Part shown: in pieces, positions 3,924 to 56,084 of the stretch
Layout of the letters: every line of letters begins with the position of its first letter
How positions within the stretch are numbered: the stretch's first letter is position 1
Origin: Rosistilla ulvae
GTDB taxonomy: Bacteria; Planctomycetota; Planctomycetia; Pirellulales; Pirellulaceae
Length of the DNA stretch: 64,000 bases
NCBI RefSeq assembly: GCF_007741475.1
Contig: NZ_CP036261.1
Coordinates: forward strand, 3,473,798 to 3,537,797
Reading direction: 5' to 3'
Notes under the pieces: model-generated
Databases searched by the model: none
What the model was told of the DNA's origin: nothing
Seen by the model: the letters and a program-made list of their open reading frames with translations, nothing else
Translations under genes and position numbers: made by a program

Positions 3924-4955
3924 ATGAAAAAGCATCTAAATACGCTGTTCGTGACAACCGAAGGGGCTTATCTGCGGAAGGAGGGACAAGCCGTCGTCGT
4001 CCGCGTTGAAAAACAAACCCGGCTCCGCGTCCCGCTGCACAATCTCGATGGCATCGTTTGCTTTGGCCGCGTCGGCTGCAGTCCCGCGCTGATGGCCAGT
4101 TGCGCCAAAGGGAACGTCTCGATCTCGTTTCTGAATCCTTACGGCGGGTTCCTCGCTGCGGTCACCGGTTTTTCGCCCGGCAACGTGCTGCTGCGTCGCC
4201 AGCAGTATCGCGCTGCCGATGCAGCCGATTCGACACTTGCGATTGCCAAAGAGATTGTCGCTGGAAAGATCGCCAACAGCCGCAGCGTGCTGCTGCGGGC
4301 AGCACGCGATATCTCTGCTCCCGATGCACAGGAACAACTGCAGCGCGCCGCGCGACGCATGGCCAACGACGTGACGATGGCCCGAAATGAAACCTCGCTC
4401 GATGCGCTGCGCGGCCGTGAAGGAGAAAGTGCGGCGACCTACTTTCAAGTATTTTCTTCCATGATATCCCCGCAAGCAACCGGCTTTGCCTTTACAACGC
4501 GATCGCGGCGGCCACCTTTGGATCCGTTAAACGCGTTGCTTTCCTTTTTGTATTCGATGCTCACTCACGACGCGCGAAGCGCCTGTGAAGCGGCAGGCCT
4601 GGACGCAGCCGTTGGGTTCCTGCATCGCGACCGCCCCGGACGACCGGGACTGGCACTCGATTTGATCGAAGAGTTCCGCGCGTTTCTCGTCGACCGACTG
4701 ACCCTCTCGTTGATCAATCGTCGGCAGATCCAAAGCAGTGATTTCGAGATCACGCAGTCCGGCGCGGTGCTGCTGAAAGATAAACCGCGCAAGACAGTTT
4801 TGGCTGCGTACCAAAAACGGAAGCAAGCTACGATCACGCACCCGTTCCTGGATGAAAAGACGACGATTGGATTGTTGATCCATCTGCAAGCTCGTCTCTT
4901 GGCCCGCCATCTGCGCGGCGATCTGGATGCCTACCCGCCATTTCTCTGGAGATAA
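3924..4955 (+). CDS. cas1: Cas1, CRISPR integrase
   Basis: A 343-aa Cas1 of the type I-C lineage (starts [20 protein letters not shown]). The metal-binding residues are recognisable: E166 in [10 protein letters not shown]234 in [17 protein letters not shown], and the acidic residues D246/E249 in LDLIEEFR. It forms the Cas1-Cas2 complex that inserts new spacers at the leader end. The gene sits four bases after the cas4 stop and six before the GTG of cas2, so cas4, cas1 and cas2 form an adaptation module directly before the leader and array. Confidence 0.96.
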
Positions 4956-4961
4956 TCCGCC

Positions 4962-5252
4962 GTGTATGTCTTGGTAACCTATGACGTCAGTACGACAACT
5001 GCTGAGGGACGCAAGCGATTGCGGAACACGGCAAAGATCTGCCTCAATTACGGGCAACGCGTGCAAAACTCGGTTTTTGAATTATTGATCGATCCAGCGC
5101 AATGGGCTCAGTGCAAAGCGGAACTCTGCGACACGATTGAACCGCAGACCGACAGTCTGCGATTTTATTATCTCGGGAACAATTGGAAAAACCGCGTCGA
5201 ACATGTGGGAGCCAAGCCGGCGATCGATCTCGAAGGACCGTTGTTTGCGTAG
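4962..5252 (+). CDS. cas2: Cas2, CRISPR adaptation subunit
   Basis: A 96-aa Cas2 starting at GTG (reading MYVLVTYDVSTT). The conserved Asp8 follows the first beta strand, and the protein shows the usual RLRNTAKICLNYGQRVQNSV helix and a SLRFYYLG strand. Cas2 is the structural core of the Cas1-Cas2 integrase. No in-frame ATG precedes it, and the spacing to cas1 is six bases. It is the last cas gene before the leader. Confidence 0.95.
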   Translation: MYVLVTYDVSTTTAEGRKRLRNTAKICLNYGQRVQNSVFELLIDPAQWAQCKAELCDTIEPQTDSLRFYYLGNNWKNRVEHVGAKPAIDLEGPLFA

Positions 5253-48294: not shown

Positions 48295-49725
48295 GTGAAC
48301 CAGCACCGTGCATTGAGGATTCAGGACCGACGAGCGTTTCTTCGCGGTTCAGCCTGGGGCGCCGCGACGGCAGTGGCCGCGATGGGGAGCTCCCGTTTCG
48401 TTTCGGCCGAAGCGCCGGAGCTCACCGCGCCCGCAGCGCTTCCGACTCGGCCTGCAGGCGTCGAGGTGTTGATGCCGCGAGATCGAGTGCCGCTGTCGTT
48501 CATCATCGATGATTCGACCTGCTTGGTGAACATGGGACACTTTTGCACTCCGCAGTTCGCCACCGCGATGCCAAACCGCGCCGAGTATCAAAAGCCGTGG
48601 CGATCGTGGCCGCGCGAGATCCCCGACAGCTTTGTCCGCAAGTTTGGTCAGTGGTGCGCCGACCAGGGCGTCAAAGGCAAATACAGCATCGTCCCCAATC
48701 CCGCCTGCGTCGGCTGGCTCGACCGGGAATTGCCCGGTTGGTCGCGGGCCGATTTGCAGGCCAGCTTAAAACTTGTCCGCGAATTGATGCTCCCCAACTG
48801 GGACATTCATCCCGAGATGATCACGCACACTCGCGTGATCGATCTGAAGACCGGCCGACCGATGCAGAAGATCAGCCCGGCGACGATGGAGAATTCGTAT
48901 CCTCAGGAAAAGAAGAGCGTCGACGAATTGGCCGCCTATCTCGCCTATGCACTTCGCATTGTGAAGAACTGTGATCTCCCCTGCGAGGGAATCACCACAC
49001 CGGGTGGCTTTGGCAATTCGATGAAATCCGAACTGCCGATCGCTGTCGACCAGGCCGTTCGCGACGTCTACGGCATCGATCTGCCGCACTATTTCAAATA
49101 CGTCATCTCGGGCGACCGGAGTACCGAGCCGAAGCTTGAACATTTGCGAGGCGTGGGGACCGACAACGTCCGGTTAACCGTCAACGTTCCGGCGGGAACG
49201 GGCGATTGGTTTGGCGGTTGGCAAGGCGATTCGCTCTCCGACCCCGACCGCTATTGCAACGCCGCGGCGACCAGCGGCCGAATGGTCGAACTGATCCAGC
49301 GGCGACAACCGGCGGTAATGATCTGTCATTGGCCGGGGATGTACAGCAATGGCAGCGAAGAAGGTTTCCGCAGCTTCCAACGAGTCGTCCAGTCGTTGGC
49401 GTCGCGATTCGGCGACGACACGATCTGGATGAAGGTCAGCGAGATCGCTCGCTACTGGGCCGCGAAACAACTGACCGAGATCCGCCGCGAGGGAAACCGC
49501 CTAACGCTCACAGCCCCCTTCGCCACGCAGCGCTACACGCTACAAATCGACGCCGCCGCGGGACCTGTGAGCATCCAGCAAGGAAGCAAACGCACGCAAC
49601 TGCGCCAGGCGTCCCGTCGATCGACATTGGACGCAGGAACATGGATCGCCGACGAGCAAAACCTAGTCGCCTGCTTCGACCTGCCCAAGGGAACAAGCGA
49701 GATGGTGTTGGGAGCGAATTCGTAG
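48295..49725 (+). CDS. Tat-exported polysaccharide deacetylase-like protein
   Basis: 476 aa from GTG 48295 (GGGAG about ten bases upstream). A twin-arginine signal is present: DRRAFLRGSAWGAATAVAAM. The following domain looks like an NodB/deacetylase-type (beta/alpha) barrel: VPLSFIIDDSTCLVNMG (metal-site Asp pair), GVKGKYSIVPNPACVGW, NWDIHPEMITHTRVIDL, LPCEGITTPGGFGNSM and VMICHWPGMY. The C-terminal part is a beta domain (LTLTAPFATQRYTLQIDAA). Similar proteins occur across planctomycetes and related groups; substrate unknown. It stands alone between repeats and the RT island. Confidence 0.75.
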   Translation: MNQHRALRIQDRRAFLRGSAWGAATAVAAMGSSRFVSAEAPELTAPAALPTRPAGVEVLMPRDRVPLSFIIDDSTCLVNMGHFCTPQFATAMPNRAEYQKPWRSWPREIPDSFVRKFGQWCADQGVKGKYSIVPNPACVGWLDRELPGWSRADLQASLKLVRELMLPNWDIHPEMITHTRVIDLKTGRPMQKISPATMENSYPQEKKSVDELAAYLAYALRIVKNCDLPCEGITTPGGFGNSMKSELPIAVDQAVRDVYGIDLPHYFKYVISGDRSTEPKLEHLRGVGTDNVRLTVNVPAGTGDWFGGWQGDSLSDPDRYCNAAATSGRMVELIQRRQPAVMICHWPGMYSNGSEEGFRSFQRVVQSLASRFGDDTIWMKVSEIARYWAAKQLTEIRREGNRLTLTAPFATQRYTLQIDAAAGPVSIQQGSKRTQLRQASRRSTLDAGTWIADEQNLVACFDLPKGTSEMVLGANS

Positions 49726-50426
49726 GGACTGGAAATGGTTTCCCGTCGTCTTGTCTCAACCGAAGCTCAATTGCAGGCTGCAGATAAAAACTTATTGATA
49801 CGCGATGAAGTGGCCAACGTCCCAAAGTTGGAACACATGGCCCACAACGAAGAGCGAACTCATCATCCCAGTATCAAGCGAGTGTGAGCCGTGACCGTTT
49901 AGGCCACTAGACCTTAGCAAGCCGATATGGCCAAGCCACGACTGATGAAACCGCTGCATACAGCGCCGGCCACCACACCACCGCCAGGCTATCCCGACAT
50001 GGACGATTGAGCCCTGGAACCTTTCCTTCACTCATATTTCTCTAGTAATCCTAAAAAATGCCACGCCCCAAACGCTCTGACGAAGCAAACGCGAACCACC
50101 ACCCATAATACAGTGGCAATGCGCGAATCAAATTTCGCGCTCACGAAAACACCCATCGCAAGCCAAAACCCTCGAAAAGAAGTCCTGACCAGAATTATCT
50201 TTCATTTGGACGCTCCCTGCGAGCCATCACTAAGCCATCGACCTACCAACAAATAGCACGGTAGCTCGACTGAGTGCTCATCTTCTTGTAAAACATTCAC
50301 TGTCGCCGAATGAGGCCTGCTGAAAAATCACGAGCGATTGGCTATTGAGGATGTGCAATCCATAGATAGTCTCAGTTGCACTTATAAGACACGAATTACC
50401 GAATTTCCGAAAACGATCTGCTTTCA
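49726..50426. other. AT-richer gap upstream of the reverse transcriptases
   Basis: 701 bp. From about 50030 the composition becomes markedly AT-richer than the flanks, marking the left side of the foreign island. No gene was recognised; a minus-strand frame at 49792-50031 resembles nothing. TATAAG at 50383-50388 may be a -10 for the RT operon, but I see no matching -35. No clear direct repeat marks an island end. Confidence 0.5.
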
Positions 50427-51614
50427 ATGACACGACTAAGCGATCCTAAGTACATAGCAACCTTAGTTCGCGCAGATGACTGCCTCCGCTTTCGCGATGC
50501 GAGACATTCTGGACCTAAACAGGCTGCAATCCAGATCGCCTCAAGGTTTGCGGATCGCACGTATGTGCCACAACCAGTCGAGACGACTATCAATCGAGGT
50601 AAATCAACACTTCGCGTAACGTCGTACGCAGACGCACTTTTCTTGCGCCACTGTTGCCGTGTGCTAAGAAGCGGCAATATACATCACCCGCCATCTCGGC
50701 AAGTGATCTGTCGGCAGTTAAAATCGGTGCTCGAATCTGATGTTCCTCACTTTATCATCCGGACGGATATTGCTAAGTGTTTTGGTTCTGTGCCTGCTGA
50801 ACAATCGCTTAATTTGCCGTCAGTCAGGGAAAAACTGAAATCTGTAGAATTCAATTGGTGCAAGACACTATTGAGGTGTAACGAAAATCCATTGCAACCC
50901 TTACATTATGGTTTAGCCATAAGCAGTGACTTAGCTGAACATTTCCTTGCAGAGTTTGATCGCCAAGTTATCTGTCATACCGGAGTTATTTACTATAGTC
51001 GATTTGTTGATGACATCCTCATCGTCACAGCTGCGCGATCAGCCGAACGTGTATTTGAAAAAGTGGCTTGCGCGCTACCTGCGGGCCTGTCTTTGAACCG
51101 AGAAAAAACGTCGCAATGCCACTGGAACGACGGAATTTCGAACAGAACAGAGTTTGAATACTTGGGATATTCGTTTATGCTGACGAAAAAAGTTAAATCC
51201 AAAACACGGACATCTATTGAAATCGGATTGTCAGAGCGAAAAGAACTTCAAATCCGCCAACGCTTGGGCCGTGTGTTTCTAGCGTTCCAAAAAGATAAAG
51301 ATTTCCTACTGCTTCGTGATCGTCTTCGTTACCTTACCGGCGGGACTACGACTCATAGCAACTTCACACATCGTCGCGTTCAAATTGGCCTACGATCGTC
51401 ACATCCTGAATTGACGAACTTAAAGCGACTTTTCAGCTTGGATGGTTACCTACATCAAAGGATTCGGGCGGCAAGCTCGGATGGTACCGATCCCTTACTT
51501 TCGACCGAACAGATGCGGGGGCTCCAACGGCTTTCTTTTTCGGCGAGCTATAAACTAAACATTCGACACCGGTTTAGCGGGAAACGGCTTTGGCTGGTAC
51601 GGGATGTGTTTTAG
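50427..51614 (+). CDS. drt3a: Defence reverse transcriptase, Drt3a-like (first RT of a DRT3 pair)
   Basis: 395 aa reverse transcriptase of the unknown-group (UG/DRT) type. Palm motifs: D114 in FIIRTDIAKCFGSVP (motif A), YGLAISSDLAEHFLAEFD (161-178, motif B), FVDD at 193-196 (YYSRFVDDILIV), LNREKT, and FEYLGYSF. The length and the adjacent second RT fit DRT3, in which Drt3a (about 400 aa) and Drt3b (about 650 aa) act together with a non-coding RNA against phages. In reported work Drt3a copies an AC-repeat RNA template. No integrase, maturase or retron msr/msd is seen. Codons are AT-richer than those of the neighbours. The second RT starts two bases after the stop. Confidence 0.8.
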   Translation: MTRLSDPKYIATLVRADDCLRFRDARHSGPKQAAIQIASRFADRTYVPQPVETTINRGKSTLRVTSYADALFLRHCCRVLRSGNIHHPPSRQVICRQLKSVLESDVPHFIIRTDIAKCFGSVPAEQSLNLPSVREKLKSVEFNWCKTLLRCNENPLQPLHYGLAISSDLAEHFLAEFDRQVICHTGVIYYSRFVDDILIVTAARSAERVFEKVACALPAGLSLNREKTSQCHWNDGISNRTEFEYLGYSFMLTKKVKSKTRTSIEIGLSERKELQIRQRLGRVFLAFQKDKDFLLLRDRLRYLTGGTTTHSNFTHRRVQIGLRSSHPELTNLKRLFSLDGYLHQRIRAASSDGTDPLLSTEQMRGLQRLSFSASYKLNIRHRFSGKRLWLVRDVF

Positions 51615-51616
51615 GC

Positions 51617-53491
51617 ATGCGAAACTATTTGAGAATCAACTCGGATGACCACTACAGAGTGCTATTGAGCGAGATATTGCCGCATGAAGTGCCACCGCGA
51701 TTCTCGTTGCGCACCATCTACGAACGCATCCGCGACAAGACGGAGCACGAATTAGACAAGGCTATTTGTCCAGGACCTCCCAACAAACCTCTCGAAACGA
51801 TTCCATATGTTTACAAATTAGTGCGCGATAGAAAAAAGCCTCGCCAAATCCATGTGATGCATCCGTTTCACTATCGGACCGTGGCTAAGTTTCTCGAGAC
51901 GTTTTCAACTCAAGTAATTGTAAACTGTCGTAAGAGTCGTTGGTCACTGCGTGCACCATATGCCATCGCGAAACGATTCAGGATAAACACTCCACTTAGA
52001 GCGGGAAGCGATAGCGAGCAAGACCAAGCTGTCAACCCAACTCGCTACTTTGCGTATCGCCCGTTTCGATTACTCTATTCGTTTTATGATTCTGAGGACT
52101 TTGGATCGCTTGAGTCTCGATTTCGTTTCCAACGCATGCTTGATGTCCAGGCGTGCTTCGACAACATCTACACGCACGCGATCTCCTGGGCGATTCGTGG
52201 AAAATCACACGCTAAGAGACAAGATAGTCGAAACGCATGGCATACTCTTGACGCTCAGTTCGACAGCCTGATGAGAAGCATGAATCATGGAGAGACTCAC
52301 GGCATACTCGTAGGACCGGAGCTTTCGAGAGTATTTGCAGAACTGCTGCTGCAAACAGTGGATTCAGCAGCCGAAGCAAGGTTGCTTGAAACTTTTGTGC
52401 ATGGAACGCACTATGAGGTGCGTCGATATGTTGACGATATCTTCATTTTCTTCAATGACGAAGTCGTTGCCGATCAGGTCGAGGCGACAATCCGAGAAGA
52501 ACTCCGACTTGTAAAGCTTTTGATCAACGAGTCAAAGACTACGCAGATAGAATCACCATTCATGTCGGACTCTAGCGCTCTTAAGCACAAAATTAGCGAT
52601 TCGATGGATCGTTATGAGAGTAAAATCAGGTCGTACAAAGAGCGGAACGTGCATCCGCCTAGCGGTATCGGGCTACGAATGCTCAAAGAGTTCAAACGTA
52701 TTGTTTCGGAATCAAATTGCACATACGAAAGTTGCGTTAGCTACGCATTGACAATTTTGCAGAAGAAGTTTGAGCGATCGGGGGCGAATCTATCGCAGCT
52801 CTACGTGGAAAGTGGGATCGTCTTCTTTGCGAGCCGACTTCTTGAACTTGACTTTAGATACCAGACAGCTGTGCGATACTCGCTCTTTTATGAGATTGGG
52901 CGAGAGAAGTTAAGTCGCGTTGACGACGGAATGTCGCGGGTTCAGCGACTTGACGAGGAGATGGTCAATCAAATCACTAAAATTAGTGCTAACGCGATTT
53001 CACGTGAACTGGTGCCCGTCCTGCCGCTGCTAGTCGTGCTTATACCACTTGCTTCCCTTGACTTGTTGCACGAAGTGCATTCGGATCTAGTGCGTTTGAT
53101 ATGGCTATCGGCTACAAAAAGCATGCGGGATGATGAAATCGACTACTTCACCGTTCTTGGGCTGCTTTTCGTTGCCGCAAACCGTGTTCAACACAGCGCG
53201 ATCAGGACGGCAATTATGTCGAAAATCAAAGTTTTTTTTGATCACATGCCGGACAACTGCAAGCGGGCTGATGCATTGATGCTTGCTTCGGACCTGGCGT
53301 GCTGTCCATTTCTTTCTGTGGAGGAACGAAAGAGCATGATCGATATCGTCAGCCGATTTTCCGGGACGAAGCTAAATCGCAACCAAGTATTCAACGCAGT
53401 CAGCGGTTCATCGATGTTTTTCGACTGGGATAGTAGCACGTCGACACTGACATACCTCCTTGAAAAACAGACTCCGATTGGCTATGCTTAA
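51617..53491 (+). CDS. drt3b: Defence reverse transcriptase, Drt3b-like (second RT of a DRT3 pair)
   Basis: 624 aa from ATG 51617, two bases after the first RT stop (an in-frame TTG at 51590 lies inside that gene). Palm motifs: D176 in MLDVQACFDNIY, THGILVGPELSRVFAELL (227-244) and YVDD at 271-274 (RRYVDDIFIFFND), so the catalytic Asp residues are intact, followed by LLINESKTTQIESPF. The C-terminal 250 residues are helical without a known domain. In the studied DRT3 system Drt3b makes the complementary strand without a nucleic acid template, using protein residues; whether those residues are conserved here cannot be judged. Probably in one complex with the first RT and an RNA. Confidence 0.8.
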   Translation: MRNYLRINSDDHYRVLLSEILPHEVPPRFSLRTIYERIRDKTEHELDKAICPGPPNKPLETIPYVYKLVRDRKKPRQIHVMHPFHYRTVAKFLETFSTQVIVNCRKSRWSLRAPYAIAKRFRINTPLRAGSDSEQDQAVNPTRYFAYRPFRLLYSFYDSEDFGSLESRFRFQRMLDVQACFDNIYTHAISWAIRGKSHAKRQDSRNAWHTLDAQFDSLMRSMNHGETHGILVGPELSRVFAELLLQTVDSAAEARLLETFVHGTHYEVRRYVDDIFIFFNDEVVADQVEATIREELRLVKLLINESKTTQIESPFMSDSSALKHKISDSMDRYESKIRSYKERNVHPPSGIGLRMLKEFKRIVSESNCTYESCVSYALTILQKKFERSGANLSQLYVESGIVFFASRLLELDFRYQTAVRYSLFYEIGREKLSRVDDGMSRVQRLDEEMVNQITKISANAISRELVPVLPLLVVLIPLASLDLLHEVHSDLVRLIWLSATKSMRDDEIDYFTVLGLLFVAANRVQHSAIRTAIMSKIKVFFDHMPDNCKRADALMLASDLACCPFLSVEERKSMIDIVSRFSGTKLNRNQVFNAVSGSSMFFDWDSSTSTLTYLLEKQTPIGYA

Positions 53492-53582
53492 ACATCCGAG
53501 GCAGGAACTCCTATAGCAAAGTTACGCAAATTGCAACTTTGCATGCGGCTTCTCAGCTAAGGCGCACATAGTATTATGTTCG

Positions 53583-53697
53583 CTTTTTTTGTAGCGACGG
53601 GGGAAAACACCGCAAGTGCCGAACCCCGCTCTTTTAACGGAGCACACACACTTTCCGCTCGGTGGCACGTTCCGTTTCGACGGTTCGTGCCCTTTTT
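53583..53697 (+). ncRNA. Candidate DRT3-associated non-coding RNA with ACACACAC loop
   Basis: Starting about 90 bp after the drt3b stop. A TATTAT -10-like box at 53572-53577 would start a transcript near 53583. The RNA contains GAGC (53640-53643) and GCTC (53657-53660) closing a 13-base loop that begins ACACACAC (53644-53651). Its 3' end is the intrinsic terminator at 53664-53697. The reported DRT3 ncRNA carries an ACACAC template; the match and position make this a good candidate. Boundaries are inferred. A further stem (GCAAAGTT/AACTTTGC, near 53515-53541) lies upstream and might belong to a longer transcript. Confidence 0.5.
53664..53697 (+). terminator. Intrinsic terminator after the candidate ncRNA
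   Basis: GGCACG pairs with CGTGCC, followed by a two-by-two TT/TT internal loop and CCG/CGG around the loop TTTCGA. The hairpin is followed by CTTTTT, giving a classical U-run. Confidence 0.75.
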
Positions 53698-53710
53698 CTA
53701 TTGACCAGGT

Positions 53711-53795
53711 CTAAGTGGTCAGGACTCTTTTGCGTTGCTTCGCGCACTACCACGGTTCAATGCGTTACCAGATCTAAGGGGGCAGGACTCATTGA
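53711..53795. repeat. Fragments of the GGTCAGGACTC MITE-like family
   Basis: CTAAGTGGTCAGGACTCTTT continues TGCGTTGCTTCGCG...CCACGGTTCAATGCG, as in the complete copies at 54270 and 56125, but stops after about 55 bp. Directly behind it another end, CTAAGGGGGCAGGACTCA, begins and is cut off. Two truncated copies side by side. Confidence 0.65.
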
Positions 53796-53861
53796 CGGTA
53801 CAGCGTAGTGTTGTGCTCCGGCGCGATGCGGAGCGAGAGTCGACTCGGAAAAGGGTTGCCG

Positions 53862-54262
53862 ACTCGTTTCGCTGGTTTTTGTAACGCAGCACGCGAGTGG
53901 ATGGTGGCATTCGCGCGATTCGCGGGCGGGACGGTTGAGGTACGTTGCTGCCGCCCCGCTGGGGCTTTTGATTGACTTGGGCGCGGTGGTCCCATGGCTC
54001 ACGCCATGGGCTACCTGCTGTCGTTCCTGCCGGAACTGGTGCGCTCGCAAGATCGGGGCGGAACTCGATTCGTTGGTTGGTTTGTATAGCGCAGCTTGCG
54101 GGTGGATGATGGTATTTGCGTGACTGGCGTGATTCGCGCGCAGGATGTCTGATGTGCATTGCCGCCGCCCCGCTGGGGCTTTTGATTGGCTTGGGCGCGG
54201 TGGTCCCATGGCTCACGCCATGGGCTACCTGCTGTCGTTCCTGCCGGAACTGGTGCGCTCGA
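53862..54262. repeat. Two copies of a 160-190-bp dispersed repeat
   Basis: Copy 1 about 53862-54050, copy 2 about 54059-54262; a third copy is at 60231. Shared pieces are ACGCAGC...GCGAGTGGATG, TTGCTGCCGCCCCGCTGGGG, TGGCTCACGCCATGGGCTAC and CTGCTGTCGTTCCTGCCGGA. The CCATGGC/GCCATGG pair gives a small internal hairpin. No coding content. Confidence 0.8.
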
Positions 54263-54269
54263 CGAGATC

Positions 54270-54418
54270 TAAGGGGGCACGACTCTTTTGCGATGGTTCG
54301 CGAATTGCCACGGTTCAATGCGTGGTCGATCGCGTTTGCCTCGTTATTGTGTTTGGGGCTTGGTGTCTTTTAGGGATAGAAGGCCAGGGGGACTCCGCAA
54401 AGAGTCGTGCCCCTTTTC
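54270..54418. repeat. MITE-like element M1 (about 148 bp, inverted ends)
   Basis: Left end AAGGGGGCACGACTCTTTT and right end AAAGAGTCGTGCCCCTTTT are inverted copies. The interior CGAATTGCCACGGTTCAATG and CGTGGTCGATCGCGTTTGCC is shared with M2 at 56125. Non-autonomous; the probable source is the REP-associated transposase whose remnant lies at 60029. Confidence 0.8.
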
Positions 54419-54611
54419 TTGTCCACCGATAGTTGTTACTTGCAATTTAGTTCGTCAATACACACAATCACTGTCCCCCATCCGCTCATCCCTTCAAGAA
54501 AATGCAATCATGCGAATTGTTCTTCTACGATGGATTGTCGGATCAATGGACGCTCCGCATTTTCGCGGCAAAATCCGTCATCAGTTTCGCTCTTCAGGAT
54601 TCTGGAAAACC

Positions 54612-56084
54612 ATGAAGCACGTTTTCACGAGTATCGTCTGCTGCTTGCTTTTTGCAACCAATGGTCTGGACGTGTGGGCTGAACCGCCGAGTCCCCAAAT
54701 TACTGTTGCAGCTGATTCGCCTGTAGCGTCTCAAAATACGCATGTGAAAGGCGACGGTGGCTTAAGCTTGACGTCGCAGAAGCCGAACATTGTGCTAATC
54801 ATGGCAGATGATCTCGGCTACGGCGATCTTGGGTGTTATGGTCAGAAATTGATGTCGACGCCGCGAATTGATCAACTGGCCGCCAGCGGAATGCGGTTTA
54901 CTCAAGCCTATGCGGGGGCGCCGGTTTGCACCGCGTCTCGAAGCGTCCTGATGACAGGACTGCACAACGGGCACACTCCTGCTCGGGATAACGTGCCACA
55001 CTACAGCACCTACTTTCAGGAGGATGACGTCACGATTGCAGAAGTCCTCCAGCCTGCCGGCTATCGCTGCGGCGGAGTGGGCAAATGGTCGCTGGGAGAT
55101 ACCGGGTCCGTTGGCAGAGCGACTCATCAAGGGTTTGATTCCTGGTTCGGTTATCTCAATCAGGACCACGCTCACTATTACTACCCAGAATACCTCGACG
55201 ATGACGACGGCAGACTTGAGCTGGCCGGTAACGCAGCTTCGAGAGAACACTACAGCCATGACCTGCTGACCGATCGCGCTCTCCAGTTCATCCGGGAATC
55301 TCAAGCCAGTCCGTTTTTCCTGTATGTCGCGTGGACGTTGCCACATTTCGCTGCCAAAGATGAAGACCCCGACGGCCTTACCGTTCCCTCGACAGCCCCC
55401 TACTCCGATCGAGACTGGGATGAGCGTTCCAAGAAGTATGCCGCGATGATAAACATGCTGGACAGCGATGTGGGTCGAATCCTGGACCTGCTTAGTGAAC
55501 TGGAACTCGAAGAGAACACCTTGGTCATCTTCACCAGCGACCATGGTGGCCATTGGTCTGTGCCCAAACCACTCAAAACAAATGGGGCGCTTCGTGGTTA
55601 CAAACGGGACCTGACCGAAGGTGGCATTCGCGTTCCCTTTATCGCTCGCTGGACCGGAACCATTTCCGCCAACCAAACCAATCGGGACGTGATTGCGTTT
55701 CAAGACATGTTGCCGACCTTCGCGGAATTGGCCGACGTAAGTCCTCCCCAGGGCATTGATGGGATTTCTGTCGTGGATGCCATGCAGGGCAAAAAACTCG
55801 ATTCGACGCGTGAGTTTCTCTATTGGGATTACGGGCACTGCCGAGCCCGTTACGATCAAGCGGTTCGCTGGAAAGATTGGAAGGGAATTCGGCAGGGAGC
55901 GGGTAGCGATCTCCAGCTCTACGATCTCGCGAGCGATGTCTCTGAATCCCACAACATCGCTGCAAACCATCCCGAAATTGTGCGGCGGATCGAAGCCATG
56001 ATGGACGGCGCTGTGACGCCCAGCGAGCGATACCCAATCGGAAAACGATACCGAGGCAGACCACTGTGGACTCGCGAAAAATGA
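54612..56084 (+). CDS. Sulfatase 1 (formylglycine-dependent arylsulfatase), secreted
   Basis: 490 aa from ATG 54612 with a signal peptide (MKHVFTSIVCCLLFATNGLD, cleavage near VWAE); an in-frame ATG at 54510 is possible. The alkaline phosphatase-fold core opens KPNIVLIMADDLGYGDLGCY (D66-D67 bind calcium). The formylglycine site is C106-T-A-S-R (PVCTASRSVLMTG). Other active-site motifs are VGKWSLG and IFTSDHGGHW. It cleaves sulfate esters, most likely from algal polysaccharides or glycans as in other marine planctomycetes (inference). It stands between two MITE-like elements (54270-54418 and 56125-56320). No maturase gene is nearby. Confidence 0.93.
   Translation: MKHVFTSIVCCLLFATNGLDVWAEPPSPQITVAADSPVASQNTHVKGDGGLSLTSQKPNIVLIMADDLGYGDLGCYGQKLMSTPRIDQLAASGMRFTQAYAGAPVCTASRSVLMTGLHNGHTPARDNVPHYSTYFQEDDVTIAEVLQPAGYRCGGVGKWSLGDTGSVGRATHQGFDSWFGYLNQDHAHYYYPEYLDDDDGRLELAGNAASREHYSHDLLTDRALQFIRESQASPFFLYVAWTLPHFAAKDEDPDGLTVPSTAPYSDRDWDERSKKYAAMINMLDSDVGRILDLLSELELEENTLVIFTSDHGGHWSVPKPLKTNGALRGYKRDLTEGGIRVPFIARWTGTISANQTNRDVIAFQDMLPTFAELADVSPPQGIDGISVVDAMQGKKLDSTREFLYWDYGHCRARYDQAVRWKDWKGIRQGAGSDLQLYDLASDVSESHNIAANHPEIVRRIEAMMDGAVTPSERYPIGKRYRGRPLWTREK

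What the first reader, a model, noticed from the sequence alone, without database searches (positions are those of the whole stretch)
53583..53697. Candidate DRT3 template RNA with ACACACAC in a hairpin loop
Shortly after drt3b a compact structured segment has ACACACAC in the loop of a GAGC/GCTC hairpin and ends in a perfect intrinsic terminator. An AC-repeat template for poly(GT) is what the DRT3 model predicts. The position downstream of both RTs may be new or lineage-specific.
Basis: partly seen in the sequence, partly recalled or inferred. Interest (0 to 1): 0.8.

Follow-up and report, generated by a model that had tools for sequence, protein, structure and literature searches.

The report
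Planctomycete DRT3 template RNA
Right after two anti-phage reverse transcriptase genes, this planctomycete genome very probably encodes the small RNA whose AC repeat is copied into GT-repeat DNA; it is a new, distant member of a defence system described in 2026, not a new kind of system.

Summary
ACACACAC lies at 53644-53651, 152 nt past the stop of drt3b, followed by a terminator-like hairpin. Both RTs pass the curated Drt3a and Drt3b cut-offs. Downstream of drt3b is the published place for this RNA, so the position is not new. An AC run of 6 or more follows drt3b within 400 nt in 102 of 105 DRT3 loci; other dinucleotide runs occur in 1 to 13.

Two details are wrong. The RNA probably begins near 53493, not 53583. 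A bulged closing helix joins 53496-53507 to 53653-53662. A model built from two 48-49%-related planctomycete loci finds 53493-53699 as its only match in the window, E 5e-5.

Best explanation: the Drt3a template RNA for poly(dTdG), beside a Drt3b with the published gate and priming residues for poly(dCdA). Transcription and activity are untested. New member of a known kind; the survey bears on whether DRT3 products vary.

The parts
50427..51614 (+). drt3a (395 aa, UG3-type RT; active site R-F-V-D-D)
   Evidence: NF041747 226.1 bits against cut-off 200; PADLOC Drt3a 260.2 bits; PDB Drt3a chain 9z6y_A E 2e-20; both Asp present in 111 of 111 aligned Drt3a sequences
51617..53491 (+). drt3b (624 aa from ATG 51617; UG8-type RT, C-terminus ...GYA)
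   Evidence: NF041748 422.3 bits against cut-off 350; E24, R76 and R238 align with residues 130, 179 and 349 of chain 26cz_A, i.e. E22, R71 and R241 if the tag is 108 residues (775 minus 667, my arithmetic); Y623 is the conserved C-terminal Tyr
53493..53697 (+). DRT3 ncRNA (probable extent; the 5' end is an inference)
   Evidence: CM from two other planctomycete loci matches 53493-53699, 27.6 bits, E 5.3e-5, sole match in 64 kb; without filters 53538-53699, 21.3 bits; fold z -3.5 for 53492-53705
53496..53507 (+). 5' arm of the closing helix P1 (CCGAG..GGAA, bulged)
   Evidence: pair probabilities 0.56-0.996 and 0.61-0.84; two-sided changes for 2 of 5 pairs; not better than shuffles as an unbroken helix
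53516..53597 (+). four inner hairpins of the leader (53516-53542, 53545-53565, 53566-53579, 53580-53597), predicted only
   Evidence: MFE; poorly alignable with the 48-49% relatives
53599..53627 (+). inner hairpin GGGG..CACCGCAAGTG..CCCC
   Evidence: MFE; also in the MFE of same-genus L139
53628..53643 (+). hairpin GCUCU-UUUAAC-GGAGC abutting the template on its 5' side
   Evidence: pair probabilities 0.87-0.91 for its GCUC/GAGC pairs; U-A to C-G two-sided change in relatives
53644..53651 (+). AC template ACACACAC, predicted unpaired
   Evidence: unpaired probability at least 0.99; ACACACACTTTCC identical in the 4 aligned planctomycete sequences; AC run of 6 or more in 102 of 105 loci
53653..53662 (+). 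3' arm of P1 (UUCCGCUCGG)
53664..53697 (+). terminator-like hairpin and CTTTTT tail
   Evidence: 8 of 10 pairs show two-sided changes among the 4 aligned sequences

Best explanation
The segment is the template (and probably scaffold) ncRNA of a DRT3 anti-phage system in a Pirellulaceae planctomycete. Inferred working: the RNA folds into a multi-branched structure closed by P1; a short hairpin abuts the 5' side of a single-stranded ACACACAC; Drt3a copies this stretch over and over (reset by the 2-nt register) into poly(dTdG), with the abutting hairpin as the 5' stop of the template; Drt3b, primed on its C-terminal Tyr and with its Glu and Arg gates, makes poly(dCdA) without a nucleic-acid template; the strands anneal to dsDNA that harms infected cells. 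Shown here: gene identity, template and its conservation, covariation of three helices in four sequences, presence of the gate and priming residues. Taken over from published work on E. coli DRT3 (PMC13174585): all the biochemistry. Not shown: transcription, start site, activity.
For: Both RTs over curated cut-offs. Published ncRNA in the same place with ACACAC in a loop, needed for defence and poly(dTdG). AC run of 6 or more within 400 nt in 102 of 105 loci, against 13 upstream of drt3a (101 of the 105 had at least 150 nt there), 2 in a 400-nt stretch inside drt3b, and 1-13 for other dinucleotides. Relatives L139, L136 and L019 (Drt3b 90, 49 and 48% identical) keep ACACACACTTTCC. Covariation: 95.8% of 72 cells paired, 11 of 18 pairs with two-sided change, covariation score reached by 0 of 500 shuffles. 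A CM from relatives without the window finds it. The sequence is single-copy in the genome.
Against: No RNA-seq. Covariation rests on 4 sequences in 2 close pairs, and the structure was partly derived from them; the number of pair types is not above shuffles (164 of 500 as high). The window's bulged P1 is not better than shuffles as an unbroken helix (20 of 20 as high; L139 16, L136 4, L019 1 of 20). The unconstrained fold of L139 did not form P1; with the template held unpaired it did. In that test the window shows no 5' hairpin, because the test also keeps C53643 unpaired. Without filters the CM places the 5' end at 53538. R1 matched only L139 of 82 other loci searched. A fourth planctomycete relative, L138, has no AC run within 400 nt after its short Drt3b frame. 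No clear promoter: 5 promoter-like sites in 4.5 kb against 4.5 expected.
Confidence: 0.9

Rival explanations
1. The 3' UTR of the drt3 operon with an ordinary terminator and a chance AC run; no template function.
For: A terminator is expected after an operon; ACACACAC occurs 56 times in the genome.
Against: AC run after drt3b in 102 of 105 loci, many with best-segment identities of 24-30% to the window's Drt3b; identical template and flank in 48-49% relatives while the surroundings change; compensatory changes.
Confidence: 0.04
2. One reading: ACACACAC in the loop of a GAGC/GCTC hairpin in a short RNA 53583-53697.
For: 14 of 16 cells of these 4 pairs can still pair in the 4 aligned sequences, one with a two-sided change, and sliding the partner lowers this to 12-50%.
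Against: Pair probability 0.0001; shuffles do as well 259 of 500 times; GAGC is used by the upstream hairpin and GCUC by P1; the interval alone folds only somewhat better than shuffles.
Confidence: 0.03
3. The template RNA is genuine but decayed or decoupled here, so the system is inactive.
For: L042 shows that a DRT3 locus can keep both RTs with no AC run within 400 nt.
Against: Both RTs are intact with catalytic, gate and priming residues; same-genus L139 keeps both RTs (90 and 87%) and the RNA.
Confidence: 0.03

Closest known systems
DRT3 (UG3 + UG8) of E. coli, with ncRNA downstream of drt3b (PMC13174585: outline, sections 7 and 10 and search passages seen; Deng et al. 2026 known here only through that preprint and passages of the review PMC13314766)
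   Same: Gene order drt3a-drt3b-ncRNA; AC template in an unpaired stretch; a stem-loop next to the template into which read-through ends synthesis (its 5' side is my inference); counterparts of Drt3b E22, R71, R241 and Y666
   Different: Distant proteins (best PDB match for Drt3b E 2e-59 over 335 residues); the planctomycete CM matches none of the proteobacterial loci searched; AC run of 8-9 against ACACAC
DRT10 and DRT9 ncRNAs
   Same: Class 2 RT with cis ncRNA and a confined template copied into tandem repeats (passages of PMC13174585)
   Different: Other RT families and repeat units; not compared by sequence here
DRT3 locus of Neorhodopirellula pilleata (L019)
   Same: 48% Drt3b identity, identical ACACACACTTTCC, P1, 5' hairpin and terminator-like hairpin in the same order
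   Different: Hairpins between P1 and template differ; template 121 nt after the stop against 151 here, counted to the run's first C

Membership tests
DRT3 | Drt3a over curated cut-off | tested here: met
   226.1 bits, cut-off 200
DRT3 | Drt3b over curated cut-off | tested here: met
   422.3 bits, cut-off 350
DRT3 | Adjacent drt3a-drt3b on one strand | tested here: met
   50427-51614 and 51617-53491
DRT3 | Catalytic DD in both RTs | tested here: met
DRT3 | Drt3b gates E22 and R241 (with R71) and priming Y666 | tested here: met
   E24, R238, R76 by alignment to 26cz_A, which I take for the preprint's EcoDrt3b from its length and these positions; Y623 column is Tyr in 108 of 113 sequences; Y666 itself lies outside the alignment
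DRT3 | ncRNA downstream of drt3b with ACACAC unpaired | tested here: met
   (sequence and fold only)
DRT3 | ncRNA expressed and bound by the RTs | not testable with these tools
   needs RNA-seq or RIP-seq
DRT3 | Poly(dTdG)/poly(dCdA) products and phage defence | not testable with these tools
   needs cDIP-seq and plaque assays
Rfam families | Match to a curated RNA family within 53492-53697 | tested here: not met
   49500-54700 searched at E up to 10: 5 matches, none there

The most novel reading that the evidence does not exclude
DRT3 falls into several ncRNA architectures built round one invariant product: a short-leader class (AC run 24-81 nt after drt3b) clustered on the Drt3b tree, long-leader classes, and a deep planctomycete lineage with its own leader and an 8-9 nt template. 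Nearly all keep an AC template and the Glu/Arg gates, so the two templates, one RNA and one protein, would be locked to each other by selection for complementary strands.
Probability: 0.45. Interest if true: 0.55.

Novelty: new member of a known kind. Interest (0 to 1): 0.42.

Why it matters
A 2026 review (PMC13314766, passage seen) lists as open how widely DRT3 is distributed and whether its subtypes share an architecture or differ in motif output. In the loci examined here, which record titles place from planctomycetes and acidobacteria to Bacteroidetes and Campylobacter, 102 of 105 keep an AC run of 6 or more and, of 113 aligned Drt3b sequences, all keep the Arg gate and 110 have Glu or Asp at the other gate, which argues for one shared product. 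The planctomycete lineage, 48-49% identical to its nearest relatives outside the genus, is a stringent test of which parts of the RNA matter.

Tried and rejected
A promoter for the ncRNA: a TTGAAA-17-TATGCT site at 53460-53488 would put the start near 53495, but such sites are no commoner than in shuffles, and across 62 loci the -10-like matches before P1 were weak and scattered; not claimed. A different template in the exceptions: L030 (TCACACG) and L033 (ATACACG) have only shorter AC stretches (that they lie before P1-like arms is my reading by eye); L042 has no AC run there although its 45-46% relatives L100, L104 and L055 do, unexplained. Viral contigs with the window protein alone gave no relatives. 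A blastn search of E. coli genomes with the Enterobacter ncRNA region gave nothing; with its drt3b gene it gave 22 of 5,426 genomes, of which one was fetched (L141; AC run ACACAC 91 nt after drt3b) and is not in the counts. A whole-family covariance model was not built.

Dropped before counts: of 121 sources (L012-L131 and window), 13 were left out (L078 and L107 without Drt3a in the stretch; L121-L131 weak or remote Drt3b) and 3 had too little downstream sequence (L073, L088, L095), leaving 105 (recounted). One search kept 80 of 512 relatives, and its candidate list was itself capped. Identical or near-identical copies (L050/L051, L097/L106, L048/L116) were not removed. One search also gave two matches below the cut-off (L010, L011), not used. 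L138 (Drt3b open frame of 379 aa) was left out of the RNA comparison; it has no AC run within 400 nt after that frame. The 104 sequences are the 102 with an AC run plus L139 and L136.

Full report
What is there. The window carries drt3a (50427-51614) and drt3b (51617-53491), both above NCBIfam's curated cut-offs (226.1 against 200 and 422.3 against 350 bits) and matching PADLOC's Drt3a and Drt3b models best. A Drt3a chain is the one PDB match for the first protein. For the second the two best are 26cz_A, named only SUMO fused to an RNA-directed DNA polymerase, and a Drt3b chain. Aligned to 26cz_A, the window's E24, R76 and R238 fall on residues 130, 179 and 349, which are E22, R71 and R241 of the preprint if the tag is 108 residues (775 minus 667; my arithmetic). 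Y623 is the conserved C-terminal tyrosine. After the drt3b stop, ACACACAC lies at 53644-53651 and a hairpin with CTTTTT ends at 53697.

Known position. Of PMC13174585 I saw the outline, sections 7 and 10 and search passages: the E. coli ncRNA is encoded in cis downstream of drt3b, has a conserved 5'-ACACAC-3' in a loop, and mutating it abolishes defence and poly(dTdG). Passages of the review PMC13314766 also place the ncRNA downstream and name the ACACAC motif.

Conservation. Of 121 sources, 105 had Drt3a, a good Drt3b and at least 150 nt downstream. An alternating A/C run of 6 or more lies within 400 nt in 102 of 105; for AT, CT, AG, CG and GT the counts are 13, 11, 10, 10 and 1. AC runs occur in the 400 nt before the drt3a frame in 13 (101 of the 105 had at least 150 nt there) and in a 400-nt stretch inside drt3b in 2 of 105. 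The three without are L030 and L033 (shorter AC stretches) and L042 (none). Loci were picked by Drt3b, not by the motif, but only the best 80 of 512 genome relatives were kept.

Planctomycete relatives. Drt3b passed the cut-off in 1 of 392 genomes of the phylum draw, 5 of 241 of the family, 2 of 397 of the class draw and 3 of 396 of the order draw, the window's own genome counted each time and the draws overlapping. The relatives are L139 (same genus, Drt3b 90%), L136 (49%), L019 = Neorhodopirellula pilleata (48%; Pirellulaceae; L137 has the same downstream sequence) and L138 (33% over 333 residues, open frame 379 aa). L139, L136 and L019 keep ACACACACTTTCC and a terminator-like hairpin in the same order. 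L138 has no AC run within 400 nt after its short Drt3b frame; it has one ACACAC 96 nt before the drt3a frame.

Structure. On the alignment of four planctomycete RNAs my three helices have 95.8% of 72 cells paired, 11 of 18 pairs with two-sided change (6 of 500 shuffles as high) and a covariation score that 0 of 500 shuffles reached; further pair types are not unusual (164 of 500); slid structures fall to 34-49% paired. The four sequences are two close pairs, so this is modest evidence, strongest for the terminator-like hairpin (8 of 10 pairs). The unconstrained fold of L139 did not form P1; with the template held unpaired it did. A covariance model from L136 and L019 alone finds the window at 53493-53699 with 27.6 bits, E 5e-5, its only match in 64 kb; without filters on 8 kb the best match is 53538-53699 at 21.3 bits, so the 5' end is not fixed. 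The model matches just L139 of 82 other loci searched.

Family-wide anatomy. With the template held unpaired, 100 of 104 loci form at least 5 pairs across the template (79% of 1040 shuffles) and 74 of 104 have a helix of 3 or more ending within 4 nt 5' of the template (28% of shuffles); both together 70 of 104 against 20%. The window itself has the pairs across but no 5' hairpin in this test, because the test also forbids C53643 to pair. The longest unbroken helix across the template beats all 20 shuffles in 56 of 104 loci (about 5% expected); among those its 5' arm starts a median of 14.5 nt after the drt3b stop and its 3' arm 10 nt after the template. The window does not stand out here (20 of 20 shuffles as high). 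Template distance from drt3b splits into short (up to 85 nt, 29 loci) and long (75 loci) and needs 3 changes on a FastTree tree of Drt3b, against 25 in shuffles; the root and several deep branches are weak, and near-copies add to such clustering. In the short class the helix beats all shuffles in only 7 of 29, so its anatomy is less certain.

Neighbourhood. The same-genus genome G553 has no Drt3b match (E 1e-60) but has both flanking genes (90% and 97% identical), with another candidate defence gene between them, so the site looks like an exchange point for defence genes.

How it most likely works. By analogy with the published system: Drt3a copies the 8-nt AC stretch over and over into poly(dTdG), the abutting hairpin limiting read-through; Drt3b makes poly(dCdA) from its own residues; the strands pair. 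None of this was tested here.

What is new. Not the mechanism. A DRT3 ncRNA in planctomycetes was not found in print in the searches made: DRT3 with Planctomycet, 0 papers; DRT3 with reverse transcriptase and ncRNA, 6 papers, of which I opened two in part; the library holds open-licence PMC only. The survey bears on the open question, quoted, whether DRT3 subtypes differ in motif output: in the loci seen here they rarely if ever do.

Noticed in passing
window 53991-54037 and 54205-54251 (+): Two Acido-Lenti-1 RNA matches (RF01687, 42.1 bits each, gathering score 37) within a 135-nt direct repeat (92% identical, 214 nt apart) just downstream of the DRT3 RNA. Here the family looks like part of a repeated element rather than a lone sRNA.
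   Followed up: partly
L146:2966-6157 (-), genome G553: At the same chromosomal site the relative without DRT3 carries a 1063-aa calcineurin-like phosphoesterase with a NACHT-like region (below Pfam's cut-off) matching PADLOC candidate PDC-S60 (211 bits).
   Followed up: partly
L042 (Snodgrassella alvi), 400 nt after drt3b: Drt3a and Drt3b frames with the gate residues present but no AC run of 6 within 400 nt, while 45-46% relatives have one.
   Followed up: partly
L138 (planctomycete, genome G559): A DRT3-like pair with a Drt3b frame of only 379 aa, no AC run within 400 nt after it, and one ACACAC 96 nt before the drt3a frame. A shortened gene, a frame break or an RNA moved upstream; not resolved.
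   Followed up: partly
L067 (Moraxella caprae), Drt3b: The E22 gate aligns with His (PYHMP) although the downstream region has a 9-nt AC run; a changed gate or an alignment effect.
   Followed up: no
L030 and L033: Two DRT3 loci, each other's best match at 38% Drt3b identity, with AC stretches apparently cut to CACAC and ACAC.
   Followed up: partly
L041 and L090 (Drt3a); L046, L113, L115, L118 and L140 (Drt3b): One RT gene appears in two open-frame pieces or two annotated genes; frame breaks or sequencing errors, not resolved.
   Followed up: no
L147:6163-6999 (+) and 4558-4971 (+), genome G552: On the right side of the same-genus DRT3 locus lie an IS3-like integrase reading frame and a PIN-like frame (recognised by eye, not searched), and the window's sulfatase at 54513-56084 was not found in that genome at E 1e-120.
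   Followed up: no
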